A stretch of 64,000 nucleotides of DNA from Dastarcus helophoroides (Eukaryota > Arthropoda > Insecta > Coleoptera > Bothrideridae). The stretch's first letter is position 1. Each line of letters opens with the position of its first letter. Below are positions 2,085 to 54,325 of this stretch, one piece after another. The notes under the pieces were generated by a model. The model worked only from the letters and a program-made list of their open reading frames with translations, made no database searches and was not told the DNA's origin. The stretch lies in contig CM053332.1 in NCBI GenBank assembly GCA_028583605.1, positions 21,023,297 to 21,087,296 on the forward strand, in the 5' to 3' direction. The translations under genes were made by a program, and so were the position numbers.

Positions 2085-2685
2085 CAAAAACGAATTTTGA
2101 AAAAACAGTCGAAACTTTGCGAAAAAGATCGCAATTTTGGAATAAAAAAACAATTTGTCATTTTCAGAAAAACTAAATGTTGAATTTTGGGGTAAATATG
2201 CAAAATGGGATATTTGTGAAAATTTGGAAAAAAATCAAATTTTAGGAAAACACTCAAAATTTGCGAAAACTATTGTAAAATTATAGAAGGTAGAGGTTTT
2301 CAGAAAAACTCGAATGTTAGTAAAGGTAACTGAATTTCTAAAGAAAGAGACGAAAAATTTTGAGAAAACAATCTACATGTTGAGGAAAATTTCGAAGTTG
2401 AGGAAAAAATCGAAATTTTCTAGGGAAAATGAAATATTAAGAAAGTTGAAATTTGTAAATAGTCAAAATTAAAAGAAAAAGACAAATTTTGCAAAGAATA
2501 GCCAAAATTTCGAAAAAAAAAGGTGTATTTCGCGGAAAAGGTCGAAATTTCTCACAAAAAAGAGAATTTTGCACAGAAAGTTAACTTTTGAGTAAACAGC
2601 ACATTTTTGAGAAGAGACGTTTGTGAAAAATTTTGGAACAATTCAAATTTTGAGAAAAAGACCAATTTCGAGGATAAATTAAAAT
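2085..2685. repeat. A-rich low complexity
   Basis: Degenerate GAAAAA...AAATTTTG sequence of the same kind as 337-789, leading directly into the family A array at about 2,690. No gene or RNA is visible. Confidence 0.7.
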
Positions 2686-2689
2686 AGGA

Positions 2690-3535
2690 TAGTGTCTCCT
2701 GAAACCAAGGAAGATTAAAAAACACAATAAAGGTTGCTTTAAGGCGTTTCGATAGCCAAGCTGTCATCTTTAGAGAGATACTGAAAATTGATTTACAATA
2801 GTGTCCCCTGAAACTAAGAAAGATTATAAAACACAACAAAGGTTGCTTTAAGGCGTTTCGATAGCAAGCTGTGATCTTCAGAGAAATACTAAAAATTGAA
2901 ATACAACAGTGCCCCTGAAACCAAGAAAGATTGAAAAACACAATAAAGGTTGCTTTAAGGCGTTTCGATAGCCAAGCTGTCATCTTTAGAGAGATACTGA
3001 AAATTGATTTACAATAGTGTCCCCTGAAACTAAGAAAGATTAATTATAAAACACAACAAAGGTTGCTTTAAGGCGTTTCGATAGCAAGCTGTGATCTTCA
3101 GAGAAATACTAAAAATTGAAATACAACAGTGCCCCCTGAAACCAAGAAAGATTGAAAAACACAATAAAGGTTGCTTTAAGGCGTTTCGATAGCCAAGCTG
3201 TCATCTTTAGAGAGATACTGAAAATTGATTTACAATAGTGTCCCCTGAAACTAAGAAAGATTATAAAACACAACAAAGGTTGCTTTAAGGTTTCGATAGC
3301 CAAGCTGTGATCTTCAGAGATATACTGAAAACTGAAATACAATAGTGTCCCCTAAAATCAACGAAGATTAAAAAACACACCAAAGGTTGCTTTAAGGCGT
3401 TTTGATAACCAAGCTATCATCTTCAGAGAGATACTGAAGACAGCTTGGATATCGAAACGCCTCAGAGCAAACTTTTGTTCTGTTTTCTAATCTTTTTTGG
3501 TTTCAGGGGACAAGGCTTGTATTTCAATTATTTAA
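2690..3535 (-). repeat. Family A tandem array (7 copies, ~109 bp) ending in an inverted copy
   Basis: Landmark AGGTTGC recurs at 2731, 2840, 2947, 3060, 3168, 3277 and 3384, giving a period of 107-113 bp. Odd and even copies differ consistently (CTTTAGAG versus CTTCAGAG), so there is a dimeric higher-order unit of about 217-221 bp. Each unit holds CCCTGAAACCAAGAAAGATT, the GGTTGC box and a hammerhead-like segment on the minus strand that is degraded in every copy. From about 3,440 the sequence turns into an inverted half-copy ending in GGTTTCAGGGGACAAG. Single and palindromic copies of the family occur elsewhere in the window. Confidence 0.8.
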
Positions 3536-13164: not shown

Positions 13165-13679
13165 GTGAGTGAGTGAGTGAGTGAGTGAGTGAGTGAGTGA
13201 GTGAGTGAGTGAGTGAGTGAGTGAGTGAGTGAGTGAGTGAGTGAGTGAGTGAGTGAGTGAGTGAGTGAGTGAGTGAGTGAGTGAGTGAGTGAGTGAGTGA
13301 GTGAGTGAGTGAGTGAGTGAGTGAGTGAGTGAGTGAGTGAGTGAGTGAGTGAGTGAGTGAGTGAGTGAGTGAGTGAGTGAGTGAGTGAGTGAGTGAGTGA
13401 GTGAGTGAGTGAGTGAGTGAGTGAGTGAGTGAGTGAGTGAGTGAGTGAGTGAGTGAGTGAGTGAGTGAGTGAGTGAGTGAGTGAGTGAGTGAGTGAGTGA
13501 GTGAGTGAGTGAGTGAGTGAGTGAGTGAGTGAGTGAGTGAGTGAGTGAGTGAGTGAGTGAGTGAGTGAGTGAGTGAGTGAGTGAGTGAGTGAGTGAGTGA
13601 GTGAGTGAGTGAGTGAGTGAGTGAGTGAGTGAGTGAGTGAGTGAGTGAGTGAGTGAGTGAGTGAGTGAGTGAGTGAGTA
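13165..13679. repeat. (GTGA)n microsatellite, ~515 bp, essentially perfect
   Basis: About 128 uninterrupted GTGA units with no interruption seen. The minus strand is open in every frame (THSL repeats), which explains 190-200-residue frames that are not genes. The perfection implies recent expansion or an assembly consensus. It separates T-rich low complexity on the left from A-rich on the right. Confidence 0.97.
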
Positions 13680-17450: not shown

Positions 17451-18233
17451 TTCTCGAAGTGTCATTTTCTTCTTAAAATTTCAATAGGTCTATTTTTCTT
17501 ACGCTAAAGATTTCTTATCTTTATCCTGTCCTTAACGAGTAAGATGTCCCTAAAAGATGGTGACATCGAAATTTTACTAAAATAGCACTTATAACCCAAA
17601 AATCTTCTAGTTATCAAGTTTTATTAAAGTTTAAGTTTGAATTTTTCCTGAAGGAGAAAACATCCCTAAAAATAGTGTTCCTCTCTCTGGAAATCAACAG
17701 AACCGTTTCAGAGAGAAGAAATTGTTTCTCAAGGAGGAGATGCTCCTAATAAGTAAAGATCCGAATTTTTACTAAAATTGCTTCGAAATCTAGATCATTT
17801 TTCTGACCTAAAGATGTCCTAGTTACCTAGTTCATCGACATTGATGTCGCTTCGGACATAAAAATTATTCCTGAAGGAGGAATACGCCCCTAAAAAATGG
17901 TGATCCTGAATTTATATAGATCGTTTTCTTGAACCAAAAAACCCTTAGTTACAAGAGTTTCATGGAAATCGATAGAAACTTTTTGGAGGTAAAAGTTTCT
18001 CAATCAAGAAGATGTCCCTAATAATGGTGACCCCGAATTTTTACTAAAATTGCTAAATTGCATCTACCTAGATCATCTTCTTGACCCAAATATTTCCTGC
18101 TCACCAAGTTTTATCGAAACTAATAAGAGTCGTTGCAGAGACAAAAATTGTTCCTGAAAGAAGCAAAGTCCCTAAAAAAATTGTCATCTTAAATTTTTAC
18201 AAATAATTTTTCCAATTCAAAAAAATGTTGGTT

Positions 18234-18465
18234 AGCGATGCAAATAGAATGTAACCTAGACTACACTAAGGGTGTATAGTAGATCATGAATAATGAACTA
18301 TCAACAGTTGAGCCACAAACACTTAGCAAAGCGGCTGCTCTATAGGGAAACCCCAGAAGACTATCATATAAATACACGGACCAATACGCTTGAACAGATA
18401 TTGGTTTGCGCATTAGGACTTGGTTACCGACTTTGGTCAGAAATGGTAGAACATACGTAGAATCG
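18234..18465 (-). mobile_element. Element X fragment, very diverged
   Basis: ATGCAAATAGAATGTAACCT, AGACTACA, CAACAGTTGAG, AGCAAAGCGGCTGCTCT, CAGAAGAC and GACCAATACGCTTGAACA follow the same order as in element X at 33,074. The region where the ribozyme should lie no longer has a core. This is an older copy than those at 30.9-33.6 kb. Confidence 0.6.
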
Positions 18466-18478
18466 TTTCAGATATAAA

Positions 18479-27399: not shown

Positions 27400-30075
27400 A
27401 CTACTGATGAACTTTCGTTTTTCATTAAAATTTTGATGACCAAATGAATATAAAGTAGTACAGCTTGAAAAATAGTATCATATGAAGACAACATTGTGGA
27501 GGAAAAAAAATATATTGCTGATGAACTTTCGGTTTTTTTATTGAAATTTTAACCACCAAATGATTATCAGGCAATACAGCTGAGAAAAAAGAATTATATG
27601 AAGACAAGATTGTAGTGGAAAAATAAGCTATTACTGAGAGCAACCGCTTCGCTAGGTGGCAGTGTTTCAACATTTGGTAGTTCGGCTACCTATGATTCAC
27701 TATACACGCCTGGAGGGCTGCATGAATTTGTAGTCTAGGTCGCATTCTTCTTGCATATTACTGATGAACTTTCATTTTTCATTAAAACTTTGGCCACCAA
27801 ATGCATATTAAGCAGTACAGCTAAGAAAAATGTAACATATGAAGACAAGATTTTAGTAGAAAAAGAAAATATTACTGATGAACTTTCGCTTTGCATTGAA
27901 ATTTTGACCACCAAATGACTTTTCTTGATCACCAAACGATGATTAAGCAGCACAGATTAGAAAAATTATCCATATGAAGACAAGGTTGTAGTGGAAAAAT
28001 AAACTATTACTGATGAACTTTTGTTTTCCATTGAAAATTTGACCACCAAACGATTTTTTTTGATCACCAAATGATTCATTAGCAGTACAGCTTGGAAAAA
28101 TGATGCATATGAAGGCAAAATTGTATTGGAAAAACAAAATATTACTGATGAACTTCCGTTTTTCATTAAAATTTTGATCACCAAATGATTATTATCTAGT
28201 ACAGAGGGCTGCATGAATTTGTAGTCTAGGTCGCATTCTTCTTGCATATTACTGATGAACTTTCATTTTTCATTAAAACTTTGGCCACCAAATGCACATT
28301 AAGCAGTACAGCTAAGAAAAATGTAACATATGAAGACAAGATTTTAATAGAAAAAGAAAATATTACTGATGAACTTTCGCTTTGCATTGAAATTTTGACC
28401 ACCAAATGACTTTTCTTGATCACCAAACGATGATTAAGCAGCACAGATTAGAAAAATTATCCATAAGAAGACAAGGTTGTAGTGGAAAAATAAACTATTA
28501 CTGATGAACTTTTGTTTTCCATTGAAAATTTGACCACCAAACGATTTTTTTTTGATTACCAAATGATTCATTAGCAGTACAGCTTGGAAAAATGATGCAT
28601 ATGAAGGCAAAATTGTATTGGAAAAACAAAATATTACTGATGAACTTCCGTTTTTCATTAAAATTTTGATCACCAAATGATTATTATCTAGTACAGAGGG
28701 CTGCATGAATTTGTAGTCTAGGTCGCATTCTTCTTGCATATTACTGATGAACTTTCATTTTTCATTAAAACTTTGGCCACCAAATGCATATTAAGCAGTA
28801 CAGCTAAGAAAAATGTAACATATGAAGACAAGATTTTAGTAGAAAAAGAAAATATTACTGATGAACTTTCGCTTTGCATTAAAATTTTGACCACCAAATG
28901 ACTTTTCTTGATCACCAAACGATGATTAAGCAGCACAGATTAGAAAAATTATCCATATGAAGACAAGGTTGTAGTGGAAAAATAAACTATTACTGATGAA
29001 CTTTTGTTTTCCATTGAAAATTTGACCACCAAACGATTTTTTTTGATCACCAAATGATTCATTAGCAGTACAGCTTGGAAAAATGATGCATATGAAGGCA
29101 AAATTGTATTGGAAAAACAAAATATTACTGATGAACTTCCGTTTTTCATTAAAATTTTGATCACCAAATGATTATTATCTAGTACAGAAGGCTGCATGAA
29201 TTTGTAGTCTAGGTCGCATTCTTCTTGCATATTACTGATGAACTTTCATTTTTCATTAAAACTTTGGCCACCAAATGCATATTAAGCAGTACAGCTAAGA
29301 AAAATGTAACATATGAAGACAAGATTTTAGTGGAAAAAGAAAATATTACTGATGAACTTTCGCTTTTCATTGGAATTTTGACCACCAAATGACTTTTTTT
29401 GATCACCAAACGATGATTAAGCAGCACAGATTAGAAAAATTATCCATATAAAGACAAGATTATAATGAAAAAATAAACTATTGCTGATGAACTTTTCTTT
29501 TTCATTGAAAATTTGACCACCAATCGATTTTTTTTTGACCACCAAATGATTATTTAGCAATACAGGTTAGAAAAATGGTGCATATGAAGGCAAAATTATA
29601 TTGGAAAAAGAAAATATTGCAGATGAACTTTCGTTTTTCATTGAAATTTTGACCACCAGATGACTTTTTTTGATCACCAAATGATTATTAAGCAACACAG
29701 TTTAGAAAAATGATCCATATGAAGACAAGGTTGTAGTGGAAAAATAAACTATTACTGATGAACTTTCGTTATTTATCGAAATTTTGCCCACCAAATGATT
29801 ATTAAGCAGTACAGCTTAGAAAAATGATTCAGATGAAGGCAAAATTATAATGGAAAAAGAAAATATTACTGATCAACTTTCGTTTTTCGTTGAAAGTTTG
29901 ACCACCAAAGACATCGGTGAGTATTAGGAATGATCGGTTTAGTTTCAGACGAAGCGTCTGGTCAGTTCTTAGAATCTCTAGCATATTCAAATAGGCACAA
30001 CTTTCCAAGTATGAAGGATAAATTATAGTGGAAAAATAAAATATTACTGATGAATTTTAAAGTCTCACTGAAATT
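27400..30075. repeat. Satellite of ~107-136-bp monomers with ~491-bp higher-order units
   Basis: Monomers share ATTACTGATGAACTTTCG, TTTTCATTGAAATTTTGACC, ACCAAATGATTATTAAGCAG and AAAAATGATGCATATGAAG. Four-monomer higher-order units repeat from about 27,716, 28,204, 28,695 and 29,187 (491-492 bp apart) and are nearly identical. Simple monomers flank them (27,400-27,630 and 29,430-30,075). Repeated 64-101-residue minus-strand frames are repeat products. Confidence 0.9.
27636..27757 (+). mobile_element. Element X terminal piece inside the satellite
   Basis: GAGAGCAACCGCTTCGCTAG, CAGTGTTTCAAC, CTATACACGCCTGGAGGGCT, GCATGAATTTGTAGTCTAGG and TTCTTGCATA match the 3' part of element X at 31,287-31,407. 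Its last ~42 bp (GGGCTGCATGAATTTG to TTGCATA) recur in each higher-order unit at 28,205-28,248, 28,697-28,741 and 29,188-29,231. Confidence 0.85.
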
Positions 30076-30752: not shown

Positions 30753-30920
30753 AAAAATTATTAATTGAAAACAACAACCCTAGATTGTGAATATAAAAAT
30801 TTAAAATGAAAGAGATTACATACTCTCATTGAACATGTATTTATTAATGCAGTCTTATTATAAGTAATAATTTTTCTAAAGCACAGACCAATAGGTTTGA
30901 ACATTCATTAGATTCGAAGT

Positions 30921-30966
30921 TTGGAAACCAAATACCGGTTTCGATCTTGTTAGATCTCGTCAGTTT
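30921..30966 (-). ncRNA. Hammerhead ribozyme, core intact but stem I truncated (element X)
   Basis: Read on the minus strand: CUGACGA (30,963-30,957), stem II GAUCU/AGAUC, GAAAC, loop CG, GU, A, then UUUGG. The 5' strand of stem I is AUUAAA instead of CCAAA because the element is broken just there. Only three stem I pairs remain, so activity is unlikely. Confidence 0.7.
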
Positions 30967-31152
30967 AATCACTATACATGCCTGGAGGGCTGCATGAATT
31001 TGTAGTCTAGGTTGTATTCTACTTGCATACGACATTGTTGGCGATGGCCATAGTTTCTCTATGGACCAATAGGTGGTAGTACTAAGAGTCACTCGCTTGA
31101 CGTCTATGAATGTTTAAGTACTTACTTGTCGGAACATTTATTAGCATTCGAG

Positions 31153-31209
31153 TTGGATATACCAAACTGACGAGATCTAACAAGATCGAAACCGGTATTT
31201 GGCTTCCAA
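31153..31209 (+). ncRNA. Type I hammerhead ribozyme, all core positions intact (element X)
   Basis: Seen directly: outer stem I UUGGA (31,153-31,157) with UCCAA (31,205-31,209); inner stem I CCAAA (31,162-31,166) with UUUGG (31,198-31,202); core CUGACGA (31,167-31,173); stem II GAUCU (31,174-31,178), loop AACA, AGAUC (31,183-31,187); GAAA (31,188-31,191) and C; loop CG; GU (31,195-31,196); H17 = A31197. Predicted cleavage is between 31,197 and 31,198. All invariant hammerhead bases are present, and N7 = C is allowed. The internal loop in stem I and the stem II loop are placed where natural hammerheads make tertiary contacts. Activity is inferred, not shown. Confidence 0.88.
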
Positions 31210-31419
31210 ACTTCGAATCTAATAAATGTTCAAACCTATTGGTCTGTGCATTATAAAATCCTTGTCTTCTGGGAAATTATTCCTAGAGAGCAACCGTTTC
31301 GCTAGGTGGCAGTGTTTCAACTATTCAACAGCTACCTATGATTCCACTATACACGCCTGGATAGGAGGGCTGCATGAATTTGTAGTCTAGGTTGTATTCT
31401 ACTTGCATAATAATTTTTC

Positions 31420-32400
31420 CTTAAACGTTTACATTTATCTAATCGCTGTATCTTTTTCGCGATACCTCATTCACTAGATGTTTTGATTAATCTTTCATCC
31501 CCCATGCCTTCCTTTGAGTCTTTAGATTTGTTGAGTTAATTTTCAAAGTGAAACGTTAAAAAGACTGCTTCATAAAGAAAATAATACTTGACAGATCTGG
31601 AGATTCAAAGGAAGGTACAACCGGCCAGAAATTTTGTTCAAGCGAGTTTATATTTGACGTGATTCAATCTTCCAAAAAAAAATCAAAGATGCGAAATTAT
31701 GTGGCATAATTCCTTATGATAAAGTGAAGCGACGAGAGCGTCGCGTCGCTCAATTTCCCCGTCAAACTTCGAGGAGAGATTTGTGTTAAATAAGCATTAA
31801 AACGGCGCAGGACCACAAAGCATCACTGACACATACATAACGTTAATTTGACAAAGCGACGAGTCAGCACGAGGCGCAAGAAGTAGAAGTCAGCCCTCCG
31901 ATATCTTTCCGTGCCGGCTTCGTCAGCATATTCTTGCGCCGTTGTCAGACGATGTCGCAGCAAACTAAGGTAATAATGTCCTTCATTTGTCTTCATTTGC
32001 TTAAGACTACTAACAAACATCGACCACTTTGTTAGTGCATACTTGGGGGAGGTCGAATTACGAAGACCTGGCGGCGTATGCAAATGTTCGCGGAAAAGAA
32101 ATATACGTCCCATTTCCCGGCCTAATTTGCGTGTGATTTAGTCGCGTTAGAGGGTAAGACTGCTCGAGCCCACGTTACACTTTGCCCGTCTCTTTAAACT
32201 TAGAACTAACCCCAGCCGAGATACCTTCGCTGATCACCGGAAGTAAAACAAACACGAACAGTTGGCAGATTCAAAAAGAACGTTTAATTTTCAAGCTTTA
32301 TAAAATATTTCCTAGAATATTTTTTTTCAAGAAAGTTCTGTAGTGGAAATCTTAAAAAGTGAATGTTTTTGACGTGGGGCAAACTTGTCCTTTAATTGGG
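31420..32400. other. Unique DNA with a GC-richer patch
   Basis: 31,730-32,260 is richer in C, G and CpG than its surroundings and holds a 96-codon minus-strand frame (31,823-32,113) with no recognised domain. It may be conserved noncoding or old coding DNA; no call is possible. Confidence 0.3.
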
Positions 32401-32489
32401 GAGTCGTTAAATATTTTAAGATAAGAAATTTTGACTTGTTTCTTTAAATTTCTACTTATTTTTATAAAATTTTTCTTAACATTTGCTCC

Positions 32490-32740
32490 TTTTTCGAAAT
32501 TTTGACAAAATTTGAGTGTCCCTGGGAAATTTTGACAAAATTTGAGTGTCCCTGGGAAATTTTGACAAAATTTGAGTCTCCCTGGAAAATTTTGACAAAA
32601 TTTGACTCTCTCTAAAAAATTTTAACAAAATTTGACTTTCTCTGGGAAATTTTAACAAAATTTGACTCTTTCTGAGAAATTTTGACAAAATTTGAGTCTC
32701 TCTGAAAAATTTTAACAAAACTTGATTCTAAAAAATCTCG
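32490..32740. repeat. 30-bp minisatellite, ~8 copies
   Basis: The unit is CCTGGGAAATTTTGACAAAA followed by TTTGAGTGTC (30 bp), with CTCTCTGA variants. A shorter related block lies at 36,350-36,470, so this block and its right flank to 33,060 were duplicated within the macro-satellite region. Confidence 0.85.
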
Positions 32741-33271
32741 ACTTTTTATTAAATTTCGACTTTTTAGCGAAATTGTGATTTTTTTTAAAATTGTGTTTGG
32801 GTTTTCGAGACTTTAGATTTTTACCTTAAAACTCACCTTTTTTCTAAAATGTCAGGTTTTGTATTTTAAATTTGATTTCCTGAAAATTCTAGCTTTATCC
32901 AAAATTGAGTTTTTTTATTATAATTCGTCTATTTCTTAAAACTACGATATATTTAAATTTTTTTTTAAATCTTAAGTTTTTTTGTTTTTAATTTGATTGT
33001 CTGAAAGTAACAGCTTTATCCCAAAGCTGGGTTTTTTATTATAATTCGTCTTTTTCTAAATTATGAGGTTACATATGCAAGAAGAATGCAACCTAGACTA
33101 CAAATTCATGCAGCCCTCTAGGCGTGGCGTGTATAGTGAATCATAGCTAGCTGAACTACCAACAGTTGAAACACTGCCACCTGGCGAAGCGGTTGCTCTC
33201 TAGGAGAGTTCCCAGAAGACAAGGATTCTCTAATGCACAGACCAATAGATCTGAACATTTATTAAATTCGA

Positions 33272-33332
33272 AGTTTGGAAACCAAATACCGCTTTCGATC
33301 TTATTAAATCTCGTCAGTTTGGTATACCCAAC
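33272..33332 (-). ncRNA. Hammerhead ribozyme, degenerate (element X)
   Basis: Minus strand: CCAAA, CUGACGA, stem II GAUUU/AGAUC (one U-G pair), GAAAG instead of GAAAC, CG, GU, A, UUUGG. Both stem I halves are kept. The C to G change destroys the second pair of stem III. Confidence 0.7.
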
Positions 33333-33473
33333 TCGAATGCTAATAAATGTTTCGACAAGTAAGTACTAAAACATTCACAGGGTGGTAGTACTAGGTGGTA
33401 GTACTAAAGAATCACTCGCTTGACGCCTGTGAATGTTTTAGTACTTACTTTTCGGAACATTTGTTAGCACTCG

Positions 33474-33536
33474 AGTTGGATTTACCAAACTGACAAGATC
33501 TAACAAGATCGAAACCGGTATTTGGTTTCCAAACTT
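33474..33536 (+). ncRNA. Hammerhead ribozyme, core-mutated (element X)
   Basis: CCAAA, CUGACAA (G8 changed to A), stem II GAUCU/AGAUC, GAAAC, CG, GU, A, UUUGG. G8 takes part in catalysis in hammerheads, so this copy should be inactive, although all stems are preserved. Confidence 0.75.
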
Positions 33537-33593
33537 TGAATCTAATAAATGTTCAAACCTATTGGTCTGTGCATTATAGAATACGAGGTTACA

Positions 33594-45289: not shown

Positions 45290-45545
45290 AATAAATGGGA
45301 TCGGGTGATATATTAGCTTTTTTCATATAGAAAAATGAATAACAAATAAGGTAAATATTTATTAATTAAATGTTCTGTAATTAAACAGTTAAACGTGCTT
45401 AAAATTGAAAATACGTACAACCGCAACCATAGACTAGTTTCGGCCTTCCTTGGCCTCATCAGTATGGTACAGTGGTTGAATAGACTTTTAACTTAAAGCC
45501 GTTAGTCAGTCGTATAAGTATCTGAGTAGACCCCCATTGGGTGAC
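45290..45545 (-). repeat. Hammerhead-bearing dispersed repeat (family D-HHR)
   Basis: Includes GTGATATATTAGCTTTTTTC, ATTAAATGTTCTGTAATTAA, GTTAAACGTGCTT, the ribozyme and TTAAAGCCGTTAGTCAGTCG. A diverged, internally inverted copy lies at 60,520-60,670. Borders are uncertain. Confidence 0.6.
45418..45478 (-). ncRNA. Type I hammerhead ribozyme with perfect core
   Basis: On the minus strand: outer stem I CAACC (45,478-45,474) with GGUUG (45,422-45,418); inner stem I CCAUA (45,467-45,463) with UAUGG (45,431-45,427); core CUGAUGA (45,462-45,456); stem II GGCC (45,455-45,452), loop AAGGAA, GGCC (45,445-45,442); GAAA (45,441-45,438) and C; loop UA; GU (45,434-45,433); H17 = C45432. Cleavage is predicted 3' of C45432 (minus strand). 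Every catalytic base matches the canonical hammerhead and all four helical segments are fully paired. The stem I internal loop and the GA-rich stem II loop are where natural type I hammerheads interact. This architecture is known from Penelope-like elements and metazoan retrozymes. Activity is not shown. Confidence 0.92.
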
Positions 45546-45862
45546 TTGCAACTGACTTTTAACTGTTTATTACGCAAACATTTTTGCTAATTAAAGCATT
45601 CTTCTTTGCTAGGATAATAAGACTTGTATATACAAATATGTACAAGTTTATTACGATGCAATTGAAACCTAATTTTATTGGAATCTAATGAAAACTAGAT
45701 TGCAATTGCAAAGTTCACGTAGATAAGGCAAAGCTTGTATTACAAGTTGCATCGCAATATCCATAGATACAAACGTCCCCGGCGTGACTTTATTTTTATC
45801 TAGTTCGACCAATTAAGTAAATATTTGTGAAATTTTATAATTAAGATTACCTTTTGTTTCAG
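45546..45862. other. Unique AT-rich DNA
   Basis: No feature beyond a possible splice acceptor tract at its right end (CCTTTTGTTTCAG, 45,850-45,862). Confidence 0.4.
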
Positions 45863-50889: not shown

Positions 50890-50905
50890 AGCTTCATGGA
50901 AAGAA

Positions 50906-50952
<47 letters not shown>

Positions 50953-50959
50953 AGGAGAA

Positions 50960-51018
<59 letters not shown>

Positions 51019-51112
51019 GAAAGAGAGAGAGAGAAAGAGAGAGAGAGAGAGGGAGAAAGAGAGATGGAGAGAGAGAGGAAGAAAGAGAGAGAGGGAAAGA
51101 GAGAGAGAGAGG

Positions 51113-51152
<40 letters not shown>

Positions 51153-54100
51153 CAGAAGACAAAAAAAGAAAATAAATGCCAAGAGGAGATGAGAGAAGGG
51201 AAGGAAAAGAAGAGAGGAGAAGAAAAGAAAACAGAAGATAAGGGAAGAAAAGAGAAGATAAGAAAATAGAAGAGAAGGAAAGTGAAGAGACCAGAAAGAA
51301 AAAGAAGGGAAAGAAAGGAAATATAAGAAAAGGAAAAGAAAGGAAAGGTAAGGGAACGAAAGAAAGGCAAGGACGAGAAGAAAGAAGAAGAAAAGAGGAG
51401 AGAATGGAAGAGAAGGGAATGAAAGAAATGAAAGGAAAAAGAAGAGAAGCAAGCGAAGAAAAGAAAAGAGAAGGGAAGGAACGGAAAGGGAAAATAAGAA
51501 AGAAAAAGAGAAGAGCAGATAAAATAAGAAAGGAGAAGAGAAGAGAAAAAATTAGAAGGAAAAAGAAGAAATGAGATGAAAAGAGAAGAAAAGAGAAGAG
51601 AAGAGAAGAGAGAAGAAGAAAAGACAAGAGAAGAGAAGGAAAGAGAAGGAATGGGACGGAAGGAGAAAAGAAGAAAGAAAAAAAGAAGAGCAGGTAAAAT
51701 AAGAAAGAAGAAGAGAAGAGAAAAGATGTAAAGAAAAAAGAAGAAAAGAGAAGAAAATAGAATAGAAGAGAAGAAACGAGAAATGAGACGAGGAGAGGAG
51801 AGGAGAGAAGAGAAAAGGAGAGGAGGAGAGAGGAAAGGAGAGGAGAGAAAAGTGGAGAAGAATGAAGAAGAGAAGAGAAGAATGGAGAAAAGAAGGAAAG
51901 AGAAGAAAATACAAGAGAAGAGAAAAGAAGGAAAGAGAAGAAAAGGAAAGAGAAGGAAAGGGACGGAAGGAGAAAAAAAGAAAGAACAAGAGAAGAGCAG
52001 GTGAAATAAGAAAAAGAAGAGAAGAGAAAAGATGTGAAGAGATGAAAATAGAATAGAAGAGAAGAAAAGAGAAGAGAGAAGAGGAGAGGAGAGAAGAGGA
52101 GAGAAAAGGAGAGGAGAGGAGAGAGGAGAAGAGAAAAATGGAGAAGAGAAGAGAAGAATGGAGAAGAGAAGAGAAAAATGGAGAAAAGAAGGAAAGAGAA
52201 GAAAAGACAAGAGAAGAGAAGAGAAGGAAAGAGAAGAGAAAGTAAGAGAAGGGAAGGGACGGAAAGAGAAAAGAAGAAAGAAAAAGAGAGAGCAGGTAAA
52301 ATAAGAAAGAAGAAGAGAAGAGAAAAATGTGAAGAGAAAAGAAGAGAAGAGAATAAAAAAGAAGAGAAAAGAAGAGACGAGAAGAAAATAGAATAGAAGA
52401 AAAGAGAAGAGAAGAGAGGAGAGGAGAGGAGAGGAGAGGAGAGGAGAGGAGAGAAGAGGAGAGGAGAGGAGAGGAGAGGAGAGGAGAGGAGAGGAGAGGA
52501 GAGGAGAGGAGAGGAGAGGAGAGGAGAGGAGAGGAGTGGAGAGGAGTGGAGAGGAGAGGAGAGGAGAGGAGAGGAGAGGAGAGGAGAGGAGAGGAGAGGA
52601 GAGGAGAGGAGAGGAGAGGAGAGGAGAGGAGAGGAGAGGAGAGGAGAGGAGAGGAGAGGAGAGGAGAGGAGAGGAGAGGAGAGGAGAGGAGAGGAGAGGA
52701 GAGGAGAGGAGAGAGGAGAGGAGAGAAAAATGGAGAAGAGAAGAGAAGAATGGAGAAATTGAGGGAAGAGAAGAAAAGACAAAAGAACAGAAGAGACGGA
52801 AAGAGAAGAGAAGGGACGGAAAGAGAAAATAAGAAAGAAAAGGAGAAGAGCAGGTAAAATAAAAAAAAAAGACGAGAATAGAAAAGATGTGAAGAGAAAA
52901 AAAGAGAAGAGAAGAAAAAAGAAGAGAAAAGAAGAGAAGAAAAAAGAAGAGAAAGGAAGAGAATAAAATAGAAGAAAATAGAGTAGAAGAGAAGAGTGAA
53001 GAGGAGAGGAGAGGAGAGAAGAGGAGAGGAGAGGAGAGAGAAGAGAAGAGAAAAATGAAGAAGAGAAGAGAAGAATGGAGAAGAGAAGAGAAGAATGGAG
53101 TAGAGAAGAGAAGAATGGAGAAAAGAAGGGAAGAGAAGAAAAGAGAAGAGAAGAGAAGTGCGGGAAAAGAAAAGAAGAAAGGGAAAGAGAACAGCAGATA
53201 AAGGAACAAAAGGAAAGAGAAGAGAAAAGAAAAGAAGAAAAGAGAAAAGAGGAGAGTAGGTAAGAAGAGAATAGAAAAGAACAAAAGAGAAGAGAAGAGA
53301 GGAGAAAAGAAGAGCAAAGAAGGAAAGAGAAGAGAATGGAAGGAATGAAAAGGAGGAGAAGAGAAGAGAAAAGACAAGAAGATAAAAGAAAATAAGAAAA
53401 ACAGAAAAAGAGAGGTGAGAGAAAATAACAGAAGAAAAGAGAAGAAAAGCGAAAAGAAAAAAGAGAAAGAAAGGGAAGAAAAAAGACGGGGAGAGAAGAA
53501 AAGGGAAGAGAATGTAAGAGAAGGATTTTAAGAGAAGAGAAGGAAGAGAGGGAAAGGAAAGAAAAAAAGAAGGGAAGAGGAGAAAAGGGAAAAGAATAGA
53601 AGAGAAGGAAATTAAGAGAAAAGTATGAAAAGAAGAAAAGTAAAAAGAATAAGAGAGAAGACAAGAGAAGAGAAAAGAAGAGAAGAAAAGAGAAGAGAAG
53701 AAAAGAGGCGAGAAGAGAAGAGAAAAGAAGAGAAGAGAAGAGAAGAGAAGGGAAGTAAAGGAAGAGAAAAGAATAAAGAGAAAGAGAAGAGCAGATAAAA
53801 GAACAAAGAAAAAGAGAAGAGAAGAGAAAAGAAAAGAAGAGGAGAGAAAAGAAGAGAATAGATAGAAAGAGAAGAAAAAAAAACAAGAGAAGAGAGAAAA
53901 AGAGAAAAGAAAAGAAGAGAAGGAAAGCAAAGAGAAAAAAAAAGAAGGAAAGGGAAAAATAAGGGAAGAGAATGAAAGAGAAGGAAGTTAGAAGAAGAGA
54001 ACAAAAGGAAAAAAAGAAAAGAGAAAAGAAAGGAAAAGATAAGAGCAGACAAAAGAAAGGGGAAGAGAAGAGAAAAGAAAGAGGAAGAGAAGAAAAAAGA

Positions 54101-54325
54101 AGAAAAGAGAAGAAAGCAGAGGAGAGGAGAGGAGAGAAGAGAGAAGAAGGAAGAGAGAAGAAAGAAGAGAGAAGAGAGAAGAAAGAAGGGAGAAGAGAGG
54201 AGAGAAGAGAGAAGAGAGAAGAGAAAAGAGAAAAAAGAAAAGAGAGAAGAGTGAAGAGAGGAGAGAGGAGAGAGGAGAGAGGAGAGAGGAGAGAGAAGAG
54301 AGAAGAGAGAAGAGAGAAGAGAGCC
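50890..54325. repeat. Polypurine tract, ~3.4 kb, purine on + strand
   Basis: Nearly pure A/G over 3.4 kb. 50,890-51,160 is (GA)n. 51,180-54,325 is GAAGAGAAAAGAAG-type with diverged internal units, since AGCAG(G/A)TAAAATAAGAAAGA recurs at about 51,510, 51,689, 51,996, 52,291 and 52,849. The complementary strand is open for up to 1,001 codons (50,881-53,886, only S, L, F, P and a few others) simply because CT-only codons include no stop. This is not a gene. Confidence 0.95.
52412..52718. repeat. (GGAGA)n pentamer microsatellite, ~300 bp
   Basis: About 60 units of GAGGA, almost perfect, with two GAGTGGA interruptions near 52,535 and 52,545. It is the most homogeneous part of the polypurine tract. 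Confidence 0.95.

What the first reader, a model, noticed from the sequence alone, without database searches (positions are those of the whole stretch)
30865..33593. Element X: hammerhead-bearing inverted dimers with 9- and 12-bp target duplications
Two complete insertions (30,877-31,407 and 33,074-33,584) carry duplications of different length, TAATAATTTTTC and GAGGTTACA. For the second, the empty site is visible in a neighbouring macro-satellite unit. Both contain one inverted and one direct partial unit with a ribozyme in each. Variable long duplications and rearranged dimers point to target-primed reverse transcription of (perhaps circular or multimeric) ribozyme RNA, not cut-and-paste transposition. 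With no ORF and a size near 0.5 kb it looks like a metazoan-retrozyme-type parasite.
Basis: partly seen in the sequence, partly recalled or inferred. Interest (0 to 1): 0.85.

Follow-up and report, generated by a model that had tools for sequence, protein, structure and literature searches.

The report
Ribozyme parasite inserted from both ends
A small non-coding repeat with a self-cutting RNA motif appears to spread by having both cut ends of the target DNA prime copies of one repeating RNA, which would explain its mirror-image shape and link such repeats to Penelope-type retroelements.

Summary
The two insertions, their 12- and 9-bp duplications, the empty site and the hammerhead motifs are real. 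In the genome, element X is not a randomly rearranged dimer. Of 38 usable loci, 34 are head-to-head inverted, and 29 have one outer end at position ~377 (P1) and the other near 230 (P2) of a 377-bp hammerhead repeat. Arms run up to five units. Target duplications cluster at 12 bp (18 of 29; 24 of 29 are 11-14 bp), and the target is two-fold symmetric (AAATTTTAAC-N12-GTTAAAATTT). The two arms share sequence variants far more than arms of different loci, and P1-end units carry small insertions mostly absent from later passes. Best reading: reverse transcription primed on both strands of a staggered cut, at two sites of a circular or multimeric ribozyme RNA. This matches the inverted-pLTR plan of Penelope-like elements, whose RT and GIY-YIG domains occur in this genome. 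X is a metazoan-retrozyme-like, non-autonomous element that works like a Penelope pLTR. No helper sharing its ends was found, circular RNA was not shown, and the loci are the best 40 of 4535 candidates in one genome. New variant of a known kind.

The parts
30865..30876 (.). Left 12-bp target duplication of copy 1 (TAATAATTTTTC)
30877..30966 (-). Copy 1 inverted arm, unit 229->135, outer end P2; hammerhead motif 30909-30976 without its own stem I 5' strand
30970..31029 (+). Copy 1 direct arm, inner partial unit 316-380
31030..31407 (+). Copy 1 direct arm, full unit, outer end P1 (CTTGCATA); carries short insertions in the first-pass stutter zone that the inner unit lacks
31149..31220 (+). Type I hammerhead motif (CTGACGA / GATCT-AACA-AGATC / GAAA; A-U capped by palindromic CCGG; cut predicted at GUA^UUUGG from the recalled motif)
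   Evidence: Rfam RF02275, 30.7 bits, E 4.7e-5, below gathering; fold
31408..31419 (.). Right 12-bp target duplication of copy 1
33065..33073 (.). Left 9-bp target duplication of copy 2 (GAGGTTACA)
33074..33380 (-). Copy 2 direct arm read on the minus strand, unit 75-380, outer end P1; hammerhead motif 33264-33335 (core kept, stem III tetraloop changed)
33381..33393 (.). Head-to-head junction with a 13-bp repeat (GGTGGTAGTACTA)
33392..33584 (+). Copy 2 inverted arm, unit 41->230, outer end P2; hammerhead motif 33472-33543 with the core changed to CTGACAA
33585..33593 (.). Right 9-bp target duplication of copy 2
27638..27755 (+). Third copy, 5'-truncated, P1 end only, duplication TATTACTGA (27629-27637 / 27756-27764); lies at the start of the 491-bp macrosatellite, whose units repeat its last ~45 bp
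18235..18419 (-). Old X relative: head-to-head ends, domain B, no hammerhead; duplication TTGGTTA; part of a larger repeat whose flanks recur, with small differences, in 16 of 16 fetched copies

Best explanation
Element X is a non-coding, non-autonomous retroelement made of a 377-nt RNA unit with a hammerhead domain (unit 34-216) and a second structured domain (217-376). A Penelope-type RT/endonuclease acting in trans cuts both strands of a symmetric AT-rich site with a 12-nt stagger. Both exposed 3' ends then prime reverse transcription on X RNA, one at P1 (unit 377) and the other at P2 (unit ~230). Each cDNA runs inward along the same sense of a circular or multimeric RNA, often past a whole unit, and the two cDNAs are joined head-to-head. 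Shown by sequence: P1/P2 ends in most loci, symmetric target, ~12-bp duplication, variable multi-unit arms, sharing of variants between arms, excess of small insertions next to P1. Inferred: which strand is nicked where, the RT/EN supplier, RNA circularity, and ribozyme cleavage in vivo.
For: 39 loci were fetched; with the window they make up the 40 places scored. Of 38 kept (L042 dropped, diverged), 29 have P1+P2 ends, 4 P1 plus another end, 1 P2 plus another end, 4 are one-orientation with P1; none is P1/P1 or P2/P2. 34 of 38 have a single head-to-head switch. Duplications in the 29: 18 of 12 bp, 4 of 13, 1 of 14, 1 of 11, 3 of 9, 1 of 8, 1 of 5. Target flanks, 25 sites with duplications of 11-14 bp: both outward consensuses begin GTTAAAATTT; left-right matrix correlation 0.887 against at most 0.839 in 1000 random sets; information 5.48 bits against at most 2.99. 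58 arms of the 29 loci: 32 exceed 377 nt; no inner end lies in unit 151-180 around the predicted ribozyme cut at 169. The two arms share 46 non-consensus bases in 31 loci (21 of 31 share at least one) against 14.0 +- 3.3 (max 28 of 1000) when arms are dealt between loci. L049: 7 of 7 units identical, including a variant seen in no other locus of the set. Insertions in unit 301-345: 18 in 1599 bases of P1-terminal units against 5 in 2243 later bases, p 4.5e-4. Unit RNA fold z -8.9; predicted pairs bring P1 and P2 to one basal helix. 91 GIY-YIG matches in the genome; one frame with RVT_1 (1.2e-11) and GIY-YIG (1.2e-6).
Against: No Penelope-like element sharing X's ends or target motif was identified, so the helper is assigned by architecture. 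The spacing between the two start sites (147 nt) is longer than the 30-40-nt Penelope tail. The stutter zone was noticed before it was tested. 9 of 38 loci lack the P1+P2 pair of ends and, apart from L051 (13 bp) and perhaps L057 (9 bp), have no credible duplication; L040 has both ends but no credible duplication. Ten of 31 two-armed loci share no variant between arms. Several arms carry internal jumps or gaps (L041, L045, L051, L059, L060, L068). L046 mixes two templates. The loci are the 40 best-scoring of 4535 candidates for a query that itself has both ends. Pairs 227-229/366-368 of the helix at P2 are broken in L074, a copy of the old relative. The hammerhead core is only slightly less changed than the rest (1.3% against 1.8%). 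Not every GIY-YIG match need be a Penelope element.
Confidence: 0.6

Rival explanations
1. A LINE machinery mobilises X, and the inversion is ordinary twin priming of a linear or multimeric RNA as in L1.
For: Twin priming (recalled knowledge) also gives an inverted 5' segment; small overlaps or fillers are seen at the junctions; one-armed, 5'-truncated copies exist (4 of 38).
Against: The second start site is at unit 226-236 in 29 of 34 head-to-head loci (and 229 in L051), not scattered; the target is symmetric on both sides; no poly-A or simple tail at P1.
Confidence: 0.15
2. One strand is primed at P1 and the inverted arm comes from a jump to an antisense X transcript whose 5' end lies at P2, in the manner of the antisense-template idea put forward for A. 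vaga Penelope elements.
For: PMC3846280 (discussion) argues for self-priming on antisense templates; some X junctions are palindromic (L047, L060, L049).
Against: The target symmetry and the similar small spread of the two ends fit two equivalent priming events better; P2-side arms run through several units like P1-side arms.
Confidence: 0.15
3. X is a cut-and-paste or foldback DNA transposon; the inverted arms are its terminal repeats and tandem units arose by recombination.
For: Near-fixed duplication length; long inverted arms.
Against: The two termini are not inverted repeats of each other (11 of 25 bases in register); arm lengths vary from 61 to 1893 nt and the inner junction differs between most loci; 4 of 38 copies are one-armed.
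Confidence: 0.05
4. Variant of the best explanation: the template is always a linear tandem transcript of an older X locus, never a circle.
For: Genomic copies are themselves tandem and would give such transcripts; L046 shows two kinds of unit in one insertion.
Against: At positions covered by four or more units (7 loci, unit 312-336 left out), 15 non-consensus bases are in all units and 15 are singletons; only 4 are in several but not all, 3 of them in L046. L049 has seven identical units over both arms.
Confidence: 0.4

Closest known systems
Metazoan non-LTR retrozymes (Cervera and de la Pena 2020, PMC7229834)
   Same: Type I hammerhead with a very short helix III capped by a palindromic tetraloop (as described for the axolotl motif), non-coding tandem unit of 377 bp (described range ~170-400), GC 42%, target duplications longer than 4 bp.
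   Different: Head-to-head arms with two fixed end points, a 12-bp duplication and a symmetric target are not mentioned in the four of six parts I read. Circular RNA is shown there, not here.
Penelope-like elements with inverted pLTRs (A. vaga Penelope families, PMC3846280)
   Same: Direct plus adjacent inverted terminal units of unequal extent (inverted pLTR 37 bp shorter, optional 31-bp tail), duplications of 8, 9 and 10 bp where present, AT-rich targets, unrelated DNA framed by pLTRs moved in trans.
   Different: X has no ORF and its two ends differ by 147 nt; some A. vaga copies have no duplication or only direct pLTRs; the paper's main text has 0 occurrences of 'hammerhead'.
Poseidon PAc of Anolis (PMC11167929)
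   Same: In vitro, one protein cuts and extends both target strands, and RT starts at two internal RNA sites whose spacing corresponds to the genomic tail; a hammerhead lies just upstream; ribozyme-dead RNA is still inserted.
   Different: PAc is autonomous; its cleavage preference is reported as an ATT motif; 'target site duplication' does not occur in its main text.
L1 twin priming (recalled)
   Same: Inverted segment beside a direct segment, made by priming from both target ends.
   Different: Internal priming site is not fixed and the 3' end carries poly-A.

Membership tests
Metazoan (non-LTR) retrozyme | Type I hammerhead ribozyme motif | tested here: met
   Rfam HH9 best E 4.7e-5 but below gathering; core intact in 94 of 105 units that span it
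Metazoan (non-LTR) retrozyme | Short (~170-400 bp) non-coding tandem unit of low GC | tested here: met
   377-bp unit in head-to-tail runs; GC 0.416, longest stop-free stretch 72 aa in three tandem units
Metazoan (non-LTR) retrozyme | Target duplications longer than 4 bp | tested here: met
   12 bp in 18 of 29 loci with both ends
Metazoan (non-LTR) retrozyme | No LTR, primer-binding site or polypurine tract | not tested
   No separate search was made
Metazoan (non-LTR) retrozyme | Self-cleavage and accumulation as circular RNA | not testable with these tools
   No RNA data available
Penelope-like element (autonomous) | ORF with RT and GIY-YIG endonuclease | tested here: not met
   No such ORF in X; found elsewhere in the genome
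Penelope-like element (autonomous) | Direct and inverted terminal units with ends of unequal extent | tested here: met
   29 of 38 loci with P1+P2 ends
Penelope-like element (autonomous) | Sequence shared with a Penelope element of the same genome | tested here: inconclusive
Cut-and-paste DNA transposon | Terminal inverted repeats at the two ends | tested here: not met
   11 of 25 bases match in register
LINE/SINE | Poly-A or simple-repeat 3' tail | tested here: not met
   P1 end is CTTGCATA followed directly by the duplication

The most novel reading that the evidence does not exclude
Reverse transcription of a single ribozyme RNA circle is started from both strands of one symmetric 12-nt staggered cut, at two dedicated sites brought together by the RNA fold, and rolls round the circle in both arms. 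The inverted pLTR and optional tail of Penelope elements in general would then be the product of the same two-site, two-strand priming, and Penelope enzymes would be the helper of animal retrozymes, as Cervera and de la Pena proposed on other grounds.
Probability: 0.4. Interest if true: 0.85.

Novelty: new variant of a known kind. Interest (0 to 1): 0.72.

Why it matters
A 2020 review says that animal retrozyme repeats show no conserved motif from which to deduce the helper retroelement, while naming Penelope-like elements and Terminons as likely candidates (passages seen in PMC7761336). X supplies a footprint: two start sites, a symmetric target, a 12-bp stagger and head-to-head arms, in line with Penelope biology. 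It also offers a simple account of why Penelope elements often carry an inverted pLTR and an optional tail, for which PMC3846280 could only weigh alternatives. P1, P2, the target motif and the stutter zone are precise enough to test in an in vitro assay like the one in PMC11167929.

Tried and rejected
Rfam at gathering found no hammerhead; with E-values it did. I considered the 18.2-kb relative an independent fourth insertion until one search showed that 16 of 16 fetched copies share its flanks (with small differences); it is one old event copied inside another repeat. I considered a fixed variant of the P1-terminal unit (positions 332/334) as evidence for linear templates; one search showed different small insertions in different loci, and I re-read them as reverse-transcriptase stutter. 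Pair counts for domain B on nine sequences were uninformative; X against L074, a copy of the old relative, gave 39 unchanged, 3 one-sided, 2 two-sided, 8 broken, 1 gapped pairs, modest support only. Nine ORFs of the window gave no Pfam match at E 0.01. I did not find a helper with shared ends: the only Penelope locus fetched (L070) shows no direct repeat of a pLTR in its 4.5 kb and no similarity to X beyond chance (best E 0.20). Paper searches for this architecture in hammerhead repeats; two searches gave no paper, and I saw no description of it in what I read. PMC7229834 was read in parts 1-4 of 6; PMC11167929 in parts 1-2 of 4 plus passages; PMC3846280 in passages, part 1 of 5 and its discussion; PMC7761336 in passages; the others only as search listings.
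Full report
OBSERVATION. Copies 1 and 2 are as described: 30877-31407 between two TAATAATTTTTC and 33074-33584 between two GAGGTTACA. Random placements with the same slack reach 12 bp in 2 of 400 and 9 bp in 11 of 400. The satellite unit at 36.7 kb shows the copy-2 target unoccupied. A hammerhead core (CTGACGA, stem II GATCT/AGATC, GAAA) with an extended stem I is found on both strands. Rfam HH9 scores it at E 4.7e-5 at best, always under the gathering score. Helix III is an A-U pair capped by the palindrome CCGG, like the amphibian motif described in PMC7229834, so cleavage as a dimer is plausible but untested. Of the four motifs in the two copies only the copy-1 direct one looks fully intact by eye.

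GENOME SURVEY. The window lies in a 538.9-Mb assembly. A search with copy 2 scored 40 of 4535 candidate places; I fetched the 39 other loci and mapped them on the 377-bp unit of L049. After dropping the diverged L042, 38 loci remain. 34 of 38 have exactly one head-to-head switch. 29 have one end at unit 375-377 (P1) and the other at 226-236 (P2); 4 have P1 plus another end; 1 has P2 plus another end; 4 are one-orientation with P1. No P1/P1 or P2/P2 element was seen. The query itself carries both ends, which biases the set to an unknown degree. In the 29, duplications are 12 bp (18), 13 (4), 14 (1), 11 (1), 9 (3), 8 (1) and 5 (1, not credible). The 13s and 14 can include a chance base. Of the 9 other loci, L051 has a 13-bp and L057 perhaps a 9-bp duplication; the rest have none that is credible.

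TARGET. For 25 sites with duplications of 11-14 bp, both flanks read outward begin GTTAAAATTT (first seen with 26 sites including window copy 1). The left and right matrices correlate at 0.887 (random sets: mean 0.595, maximum 0.839 of 1000), and information content is 5.48 bits over both flanks (random maximum 2.99). The preferred target is thus AAATTTTAAC-N12-GTTAAAATTT. Such symmetry is what a dimeric nuclease cutting both strands would give (inference).

ARMS. Both arms, read inward from the target, are antisense to the hammerhead strand, as two first-strand cDNAs would be. In the 29 two-ended loci, arm lengths run from 76 to 1363 nt (P2 side) and from 61 to 1893 nt (P1 side); 32 of 58 exceed one unit. 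Junctions overlap by up to 5 nt or carry up to 23 nt of filler. Inner ends crowd in unit 1-60 (26 of 58), near a hairpin predicted for that stretch alone at unit ~16-39, and none lies in 151-180, although the ribozyme would cut at 169. HHR-cleaved linear monomers are therefore not the usual templates; circles or uncleaved multimers are. Not all arms are smooth: L041, L045, L051, L059, L060 and L068 show internal jumps or gaps.

ONE TEMPLATE PER INSERTION. Units within a locus differ by a median 1.1%, units of different loci by 2.7%. The two arms share 46 non-consensus bases in 31 loci, against 14.0 (sd 3.3, maximum 28 of 1000) when arms are dealt between loci; 10 of the 31 share none (L042 and L057 left out). 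L049 has seven identical units across both arms, including a variant seen in no other locus of the set. At positions covered by four or more units (7 loci, unit 312-336 left out), 15 non-consensus bases are in every unit, 15 in one, 4 in several but not all; 3 of these 4 are in L046, where the two outer P1 passes share a private base and the inner pass and P2 arm do not, as if the enzyme went round one molecule twice and then switched. This fits rolling round a circle, but homogeneous tandem transcripts are not excluded.

FIRST-PASS STUTTER. Small insertions in unit 301-345 occur 18 times in 1599 bases of P1-terminal units (37 segments) and 5 times in 2243 bases of later passes or P2-side units (57 segments), Fisher p 4.5e-4; no deletions in the former, one in the latter. 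They differ between loci, though some recur. I noticed the zone before testing it. The simplest reading is enzyme slippage ~32-76 nt after starting at P1, before processive synthesis, which marks P1 as a start, not an end. P2-terminal units showed no comparable excess next to P2. Window copy 1 shows the same contrast between its terminal and inner unit.

RNA FOLD. The 377-nt unit folds far better than shuffles (-141.1 against -92.0 +- 5.5 kcal/mol, z -8.9; as a circle z -9.7). It forms a hammerhead domain on a long stem (34-216) and a second domain (217-376). Predicted pairs 218-222/372-376 and 227-231/364-368 put P1 and P2 on the two strands of one basal helix. In L074, a genomic copy of the old relative at 18.2 kb (137 of 171 aligned bases identical there), 39 of 53 pairs are unchanged, 3 change on one side, 2 on both, 8 break and 1 is gapped; the outer helix is kept, the one at P2 mostly not. 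Domain B also occurs in a tandem array in L057 that shows no match to the hammerhead domain.

HELPER. GIY-YIG domains give 91 matches (150 of 1070 candidates scored). Locus L070 holds a frame with RVT_1 (1.2e-11) and GIY-YIG (1.2e-6), the Penelope combination. PMC3846280 (passages) describes the typical Penelope insert as pLTR-ORF-pLTR plus an adjacent inverted pLTR that is 37 bp shorter, an optional 31-bp tail, a 9-bp duplication, and unrelated DNA framed by pLTRs moved in trans with an 8-bp duplication. PMC11167929 reports a Penelope protein that cuts and extends both target strands and starts at two internal RNA sites that delimit the tail, and that ribozyme mutants are inserted as well. 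X has the same plan without the ORF and with a 147-nt 'tail'. I therefore place it as working like a Penelope pLTR and as retrozyme-like, but a shared helper sequence was not found, so membership in a Penelope family is not claimed.

A SECOND FAMILY. The window has another hammerhead (45410-45480, minus, HH9 E 1.7e-5, below gathering). Its repeat (2115 candidate places, 40 scored) has a ~466-bp unit. I fetched three loci, chosen because one search listed more than one match there. Two (L071, L072) are head-to-head with the same two different ends, and the third (L073) is a direct tandem. Duplications there, judged by eye, are short and imperfect. This hints that the two-site plan is not unique to X, but three chosen loci prove little.

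VERDICT. The new content is the regular two-ended plan, the symmetric target, the 12-bp peak, the shared templates and the start-site stutter. The largest gaps are RNA evidence and the identity of the helper.

Noticed in passing
window ~45361-45816, minus strand: Second, unrelated hammerhead family (CTGATGAGGCC...GGCCGAAACTAGTC) with a ~466-bp tandem unit and, in two of three fetched loci, head-to-head arms with two distinct ends.
   Followed up: partly
window 2676-3438 and around 4467, 6374, 23735, 30738, 47634: A 109-bp tandem and dispersed repeat with a hammerhead-like stem motif (CTGAAGATGATAGCTTGGCTATCGAAACG); a degenerate similar motif follows the stop codon of the Penelope frame in L070 (by eye).
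   Followed up: no
window 27713-29663: The 491-bp macrosatellite repeats the last ~45 bp of a truncated X copy in each unit, so it seems to have formed after that insertion.
   Followed up: partly
L057:1030-1700: Tandem repeats of ~150 bp matching only X domain B (unit ~200-330, 73-75% identity) without a match to the hammerhead domain.
   Followed up: partly
window 18180-18475: An old X-type insertion with a 7-bp duplication sits inside a larger repeat; all 16 fetched copies share its flanks with small differences (1070 candidate places, 40 scored).
   Followed up: yes
window 13165-13678 and 50901-54315: A perfect ~128-copy GTGA array and a 3.4-kb purine-rich (AG) tract.
   Followed up: no
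L046: Within one insertion the outer two P1 passes share a private base and the inner pass does not, which looks like a template switch during rolling synthesis.
   Followed up: partly
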